Part shown: one piece after another, positions 57,398-58,032 of the stretch | Layout of the letters: each line of letters starts with the position of its first letter | Position numbering within the stretch: position 1 is the first letter of the stretch | DNA from: an uncultured Treponema sp. | GTDB lineage: Bacteria > Spirochaetota > Spirochaetia > Treponematales > Treponemataceae | NCBI GenBank assembly: GCA_946631855.1 | Contig: CAMPAL010000001.1 | Coordinates: 1-64,000, forward strand | Length of the DNA: 64,000 bases | Direction: 5' to 3' | Position numbers and translations under genes: made by a program | Notes under the pieces: generated by a model | The model's database searches: none | Told to the model about the DNA's origin: nothing | Seen by the model: only the letters and a program-made list of their open reading frames with translations

Positions 57398-58032
57398 AAT
57401 GTACAACGAGTTTGGGGTTTCTATTTATATTTTAAAATTTGGAAAAAGCTTTTAAAAGAGTTTATAAAAGATAACTTGTGATACATTTAATTGCAATTCC
57501 TTATTTTATAACACTTCAATTTTAATGTATCACGAGATAGCTTAACTTATCATACATTAAAACAACTCTAAAGTCTTATAAAACAAAGGAATAAGATTAA
57601 ATGTATGACGTGATATTTTTTATAAACTCTTTTAAAAACTTTTTCCAATTTTTAAAAATATATTTGAAACCCCTTATCTCGTTGTACATTACTCTTTTAG
57701 CTTTTAGGTTAGGGTTTGTATTATATAAAAGATAAAGAGGAGATTATTATAATACGTTAGAGAATTAAATGTATCACGAGTTATGGGTTTTCAATTATAT
57801 ATTTAAAAAATTAAAAAACTTTTTAAAAAGGTTTTAAAAACCTAACTCGTTGTACATTTAATCTTATTCCCTTATTTTATAAAGCTTTAGCTGATTTTTA
57901 ATGTATCATATGTTAGTGAAACCAGTTATACATTCAGCCTTAATGTACAACGAGATAGAAGGGTTTGATTATATATTTAAAAAATCAAAAAGACTTTTTA
58001 AAATGTTTTAAAAAGCTAACTCGTGATACATT
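57398..58032. repeat. Array of four ~91-bp inverted-repeat elements (A) with B palindromes
   Basis: A units 57398-57487, 57600-57690, 57768-57858, 57942-58032; B palindromes near 57534 and 57900. Confidence 0.95.

What the first reader, a model, noticed from the sequence alone, without database searches (positions are those of the whole stretch)
57398..58032. Second array of the same 91-bp elements between clamp loader and DNA polymerase
Four more units (90, 91, 91 and 91 bp; three in one orientation, one in the other) plus B palindromes fill the divergent intergenic region between the clamp-loader gene (minus) and the family-A DNA polymerase (plus). Placement beside replication genes strengthens an origin or replication-control reading, which is inference.
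Basis: partly seen in the sequence, partly recalled or inferred. Interest (0 to 1): 0.82.

Follow-up and report, generated by a model that had tools for sequence, protein, structure and literature searches.

The report
Evenly spaced putative phage replication origins
A huge bacterial virus carries, about every 20,000 letters along its DNA, a cluster of precisely built protein-binding sites; most clusters also hold a sequence that sits inside the virus's own replication-starter gene, so the clusters are most likely multiple starting points for copying its DNA.

Summary
The window lies in a huge phage spread over at least nine contigs (367 kb) of a bacterial MAG. It has 202 copies of a 16-bp site, TTnAATGTAYMACRWGTTA, nearly all in inverted pairs: 54 long 'A' (91 bp) and 35 short 'B' (35 bp) pairs in 15 arrays, none outside. 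Each module is polar: A, a conserved 41-bp linker, then B (37 of 38). A and B alone do not reveal a function. The key is a third element, P: a core (TTTTAGGTTAGGATTTGTATTATATAAAA), a purine run and an A+T-rich stretch. One lies in the focal array at 57702-57754. P occurs 11 times in arrays, always aimed at an A unit, and once elsewhere: antisense inside the linker of the phage's PF03090 (ColE2-type, AEP primase) replication initiator gene. Homologues keep the P-encoded peptide, and 97 of 110 distant ones carry it twice; one relative with DNA available has a 61-bp element twice in the gene. This resembles lambda, whose origin lies inside gene O. Arrays are 17.6-40 kb apart, more even than chance (P <= 0.0002). 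Best reading: multiple Rep-dependent origins (about 0.6). Untested; the A/B-binding protein is unknown.

The parts
57398..57487 (+). A unit 1 (90 bp): two inverted 16-bp half-sites around an A/T-tract spacer, '>' polarity
57488..57523 (+). conserved A-to-B linker (36-bp version, CCTTATTTTATAAnnCTTnA...TTTT)
57524..57558 (.). B unit 1 (35 bp): two inverted half-sites 3 bp apart
57559..57599 (-). conserved 41-bp A-to-B linker belonging to A unit 2
57600..57690 (-). A unit 2 (91 bp), '<' polarity
57702..57729 (+). P element core TTTTAGGTTAGGGTTTGTATTATATAAA
   Evidence: score 32.0 against 15.3 for the best unrelated hit
57726..57743 (+). purine run after the P core (AAAAGATAAAGAGGAGA)
   Evidence: seen after all P cores
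57744..57754 (.). A+T-rich near-palindrome after the purine run (TTATTATAATA), possible unwinding element
57768..57858 (+). A unit 3 (91 bp); P points into its GGG end
57859..57899 (+). conserved 41-bp A-to-B linker
57900..57934 (.). B unit 2 (35 bp)
57942..58032 (+). A unit 4 (91 bp), no B after it
57357..57364 (-). general phage promoter-like CTATATT for the clamp-loader gene, outside the units
58069..58078 (+). general phage promoter-like CTATATTA for the DNA polymerase gene, outside the units
56058..57320 (-). clamp-loader gene (flanking)
58124..60238 (+). family-A DNA polymerase gene (flanking)
16683..17916 (.). first array of the same kind: six A units, B units, two P elements
17275..17304 (+). 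P element in the first array (30-bp exact match to the in-gene P)
16823..16847 (-). second P element in the first array
40033..40122 (-). single A unit (minimal array) between the other two

Best explanation
The array is one of many replication-origin regions of a huge phage. The P element (core, purine run, A+T-rich stretch) is the site recognised by the phage's ColE2-like (PF03090, AEP primase) initiator Rep. Rep would bind the core, help open the A+T-rich stretch and lay a primer. The A-linker-B modules beside it would be bound by a second, still unknown phage protein, or a second domain, as inverted pairs of 16-bp half-sites on intrinsically bent DNA. They would build the nucleoprotein complex that activates, couples or restrains the origin. 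Shown by sequence: the anatomy, polarity, even spacing, the P copy inside rep, and its conservation and duplication in rep homologues. Inferred: Rep binding to P, origin firing, and everything about A/B binding.
For: 1) P is nearly exclusive to arrays: 11 copies, plus one in the rep gene; lowest true score 26.1, next unrelated hit 15.3. The in-gene copy matches array copies exactly over up to 32 bp. 2) That gene is the only PF03090 Replicase in the MAG, above the curated cut-off; Foldseek's best, though weak, hits are primase-polymerases. P lies antisense in a low-confidence linker between the AEP domain and the helical/HTH part. 3) In close homologues the P-encoded peptide is 99% conserved while linker residues on either side are 70-72%. 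Of 120 homologues, 73 have an exact internal repeat of at least 7 aa, against 0 of 120 DNA polymerases. Of 110 distant ones, 97 carry the motif twice, near aa 255 and 470. 4) In the one relative with DNA (L114) a 61-bp element with the same layout occurs twice in rep, nearly identical at DNA level. 5) lambda's origin lies inside O, with inverted repeats on bent DNA beside an A+T-rich region (PMC5043065); ColE2 Rep binds ori and primes for DNA polymerase I (PMC4538821). 6) Arrays are over-evenly spaced and never convergent. 7) A is predicted to be bent: 0.830 against 0.927 for shuffles. 8) The phage encodes UvsX, DnaB-like helicase, primase, topoisomerase II, ligase, clamp loader and polymerase.
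Against: Six arrays lack a strong P; of these one is a single A unit, one ends with its contig, one has a degenerate P and two are short. The rep gene has P but no A/B half-sites, so A/B are not tied to Rep. Strand asymmetry of genes around arrays is weak (P about 0.07), so no firing signature is seen. No array-bearing relative was found at DNA level, so conservation of arrays cannot be tested. P contains a promoter-like TATTATA and could be a transcription element. The linker peptide could be conserved as a protein-interaction motif, although the non-coding copies and the DNA identity in L114 speak against that.
Confidence: 0.6

Rival explanations
1. Transcription-control arrays: A/B half-sites are operators or enhancers for a phage regulator acting on the flanking (mostly divergent) operons, and P and the linker are a special promoter class.
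For: 12 of 15 arrays lie at divergent junctions, 3 co-directional, 0 convergent. P and the linker share a promoter-like core TTTGTATTATA. In 10 of 12 cases P points toward a co-oriented flanking gene.
Against: Several flanking genes have their own general promoter CTATATT between array and start codon. P lies antisense inside rep, and twice in relatives' rep genes. Arrays are evenly spaced, whereas most divergent junctions have none. Flanking genes share no function.
Confidence: 0.22
2. Genome-organising or partition (centromere-like) sites: a phage protein binds the half-site pairs about every 20 kb to condense, segregate or package the genome.
For: Even spacing over the whole recovered genome; paired half-sites on predicted bent DNA, as in P1 parS (own knowledge).
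Against: No ParA/ParB genes on the phage contigs; hits lie on other contigs. It does not explain P inside rep. May coexist with the origin role.
Confidence: 0.12
3. Selfish repeats (MITE-like) that spread through intergenic regions, as proposed for the M1/M2 repeats of pithoviruses.
For: Terminal inverted repeats, intergenic clusters, two repeat types in alternating order.
Against: No target-site duplication. Identity of A units within arrays equals that between arrays (0.763 and 0.762), so no recent local spread. Positions 1-6 of the half-site are nearly invariant in 202 copies. Fixed 41-bp linker and near-perfect polarity. Even spacing.
Confidence: 0.05

Closest known systems
phage lambda origin inside gene O (PMC5043065)
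   Same: Initiator-binding element lies inside the initiator gene; inverted repeats, bent DNA and an A+T-rich stretch.
   Different: lambda has one in-gene origin with iterons for O. Here the in-gene element has no A/B repeats and is copied into many intergenic arrays; the initiator is an AEP primase of the PF03090 family, not O.
ColE2-type plasmid Rep/ori (PMC4538821)
   Same: PF03090 AEP-type Rep with a C-terminal helix-turn-helix-like region; specific ori element close to rep; family-A polymerase in the system.
   Different: Huge phage rather than plasmid; origin element inside the gene and dispersed; the elaborate A-linker-B modules have no ColE2 counterpart known to me; primase activity untested.
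Phage T4 multiple origins (promoter plus DNA unwinding element; own knowledge)
   Same: Several origins per genome; promoter-like core, unwinding element and purine run that could favour an RNA-DNA hybrid; UvsX, Dda, topoisomerase II genes present.
   Different: T4 origins are unlike one another in sequence and lack repeated 91/35-bp modules; no PF03090 initiator.
Pithovirus M1/M2 intergenic inverted repeats (PMC10664404)
   Same: Two inverted-repeat types in alternating intergenic arrays of a giant viral genome.
   Different: Pithovirus repeats are long hairpin-forming palindromes with possible target-site duplications; here no duplication, no base-pair covariation, fixed polarity and linker.
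Mycobacteriophage stoperators (PMC9283540)
   Same: Many short asymmetric protein sites dispersed in a phage genome.
   Different: Stoperators are bound by an immunity repressor to stop transcription; here the sites are paired in two fixed geometries inside evenly spaced arrays.

Membership tests
ColE2-type Rep/origin system | Rep with PF03090 Replicase (AEP) domain and DxD catalytic motif | tested here: met
   PF03090 34.6 bits against cut-off 26; VVDVDE with D109 and D111 invariant in homologues
ColE2-type Rep/origin system | C-terminal DNA-binding helix-turn-helix | tested here: inconclusive
   Helices 411-418 and 422-433 in the model, sequence KISKKEAAKRIGITYDEF conserved; no significant structural match
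ColE2-type Rep/origin system | Short specific origin close to rep | tested here: inconclusive
   P element inside rep; 61-bp element twice inside rep of L114. The location is met; that the element is an origin is inferred
ColE2-type Rep/origin system | Rep lays a primer that DNA polymerase I (family A) extends | not testable with these tools
   Needs biochemistry; the phage does encode a family-A polymerase
Origin inside initiator gene (lambda-like layout) | Conserved or repeated DNA element inside the initiator coding region | tested here: met
Iteron origin | Directly repeated initiator sites in helical phase | tested here: not met
   Half-sites are inverted pairs with two fixed spacings, not phased direct repeats
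ParABS partition | ParA and ParB genes in the element | tested here: not met
   PF13614 and PF02195 hits only on contigs without arrays; genome incomplete
MITE | Target-site duplication | tested here: not met
   Flank identity equals shuffled pairs
Structured RNA element | Compensatory base changes or a known RNA family | tested here: not met
   Facing positions pair no more often than independent columns predict, apart from a weak excess at 8/84; no Rfam match
Phage general promoter | CTATATTATA upstream of gene starts | tested here: not met
   Motif lies outside the A, B and P units

The most novel reading that the evidence does not exclude
A bacteriophage genome of several hundred kilobases that replicates from many evenly spaced, near-equivalent origins, all served by one AEP-primase initiator whose own gene carries the founding copy of the origin element. 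This would be a eukaryote-like multi-origin layout in a phage, with the A-linker-B modules as a new type of origin-control site.
Probability: 0.4. Interest if true: 0.88.

Novelty: new variant of a known kind. Interest (0 to 1): 0.78.

Why it matters
How phages with very large genomes start and coordinate replication is largely unknown. This gives a concrete initiator, a concrete site and about fifteen mapped places to test, and a handle (a DNA element seen as a repeated peptide in rep genes) for finding origins of many uncultured huge phages from protein databases alone.

Tried and rejected
Array relatives by DNA pattern in IMG/VR, GTDB genomes and 100 related genomes: none beyond the window's own MAG; half-site hits in IMG/VR were single and at chance level. 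Polymerase relatives at DNA level: only about 25% identical loci, or none in 276, 398 and 395 genomes searched, though close protein relatives exist. Hairpin/RNA reading: A units fold better than shuffles because of the terminal repeats, but facing positions do not covary. Rfam: no match. MITE: no target-site duplication, equal within- and between-array identity. ParABS: no genes on phage contigs. Replication-strand bias: weak. Terminase PF03237 not found, so virion genes are missing, divergent or on unrecovered contigs.

Full report
What is there. The region 57398-58032 holds four A units and two B palindromes exactly as described. Both are made of one 16-bp half-site, consensus TTnAATGTAYMACRWGTTA with its flank, in inverted pairs: outer distance 91 bp (A) or 35 bp (B). 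A position-weight scan of the nine contigs that carry it (C1, C2, C4, C7, C13, C16, C19, C24, C32; 366,563 bp) gives 202 half-sites, with positions 1-6 nearly invariant, forming 54 A and 35 B units in 15 arrays. A loose scan finds 91 pairs in arrays and none outside.

Which organism. The window is contig C1 of a 2.65-Mb, 77%-complete MAG, but these contigs are a huge phage. They encode clamp loader, family-A polymerase, UvsX, DnaB-like and Dda-like helicases, primase, topoisomerase II, ligase, ribonucleotide reductase, homing endonucleases and some 22 tRNAs. No virion gene was identified, so the genome is incomplete or very divergent. Arrays were found only on these contigs.

Fine structure. 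When an A and a B unit are 35-43 bp apart, B lies on the same side of A in 37 of 38 cases. In the 24 A-B neighbour pairs at other distances A always shows its other end to B. The linker is itself conserved, TAATYTYATTTCTTTRTWTTATAAnRCTTTAnCGCGnTTTT, and absent elsewhere: 47 of 49 hits lie in arrays. The inside of A is A/T tracts at roughly helical intervals and is predicted to be bent. A units fold better than shuffles because of their terminal repeats, but facing positions do not covary, so the half-sites are best read as protein sites on double-stranded DNA. A copies are as different within an array as between arrays (76% identity), so the arrays are old and held by selection.

The third element. 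Gaps between modules hold element P: TTTTAGGTTAGGATTTGTATTATATAAAA, then a purine run, then an A+T-rich near-palindrome. P is at 57702-57754 here. All 11 array copies point into the GGG end of an A unit (read from the positions). Only one further copy exists in the phage contigs. It lies inside C7:33880-35334, the only gene in the MAG that matches PF03090, the Replicase family of ColE2-type Rep. There it is antisense, in a low-complexity, low-confidence linker between the AEP domain and the helical/HTH part. Up to 32 bp match array copies exactly.

Relatives. In nine close homologues (84-91% identical) the peptide encoded by P, SSFLYNTNPNL, is 99% conserved, while linker residues on either side are 70-72% conserved. 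In more distant homologues the corresponding motif is duplicated: 73 of 120 listed proteins contain an exact repeat of at least 7 residues, against 0 of 120 polymerases, and 97 of 110 have the motif at both about residue 255 and about residue 470. The one relative whose DNA could be fetched (L114, IMGVR_UViG_3300031867_000229) has a 61-bp element twice in its rep gene, nearly identical at DNA level, with the same order: A+T-rich, pyrimidine run, core on the coding strand. The constraint is therefore most simply on DNA. A duplicated element inside an initiator gene, with a site-plus-A+T-rich layout, is what an origin looks like; lambda is the textbook case (PMC5043065), and ColE2 Rep is known to bind its origin and prime there (PMC4538821).

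Spacing and surroundings. Array-to-array distances are 17.6, 19.2, 22.2, 22.8, 37.2 and 40.0 kb. Keeping the number of arrays per contig, random placement reaches a smallest distance of 17.6 kb in at most 0.0002 of trials, also when arrays are drawn from divergent junctions. Twelve arrays are at divergent junctions, three co-directional, none convergent. Several flanking genes have their own general promoter CTATATT outside the array, including both genes here. Third-codon-position skew around arrays is only weakly suggestive.

Reading. I take the arrays to be multiple Rep-dependent origins (0.6). What binds A and B is unknown: the rep gene has P without half-sites, so it need not be Rep. Transcription control (0.22) and genome organisation (0.12) remain open and are not exclusive. 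Selfish repeats are unlikely.

Noticed in passing
58124-61828: The family-A polymerase ends inside the polymerase domain (profile 2-151 of 381) and is followed by a homing endonuclease gene; some homologues are about 843 aa and others about 701 aa with an intein-like end, so the polymerase may be split by an intein or intron.
   Followed up: no
L114:10692-10754 and 11316-11378; P0141, P0153 and other Rep homologues: A DNA element duplicated inside rep genes shows up as a repeated short peptide; this could be used to find origins of many uncultured phages from protein data.
   Followed up: partly
17514-17617; L017:11385-11544; L011:12775-12845: Some arrays contain CTATATTATA next to a small terminator-like hairpin with differing stem sequences; it may encode a very short RNA or stop read-through.
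   Followed up: no
whole phage: General promoter CTATATTATA followed by an unusual GAGGTAC ribosome-binding motif; one 2-kb contig (C217) of the MAG also has it and is probably phage.
   Followed up: partly
49253-50551; L022:9823-11292: TnpB (IS605 OrfB) genes, one directly beside an array.
   Followed up: no
51-1142: Adenylosuccinate-synthetase-like gene, possibly PurZ-like, which would suggest modified bases; not tested.
   Followed up: no
phage contigs C2-C13: Eukaryotic-type topoisomerase IB domains and a BspA-type leucine-rich-repeat protein in the phage.
   Followed up: no
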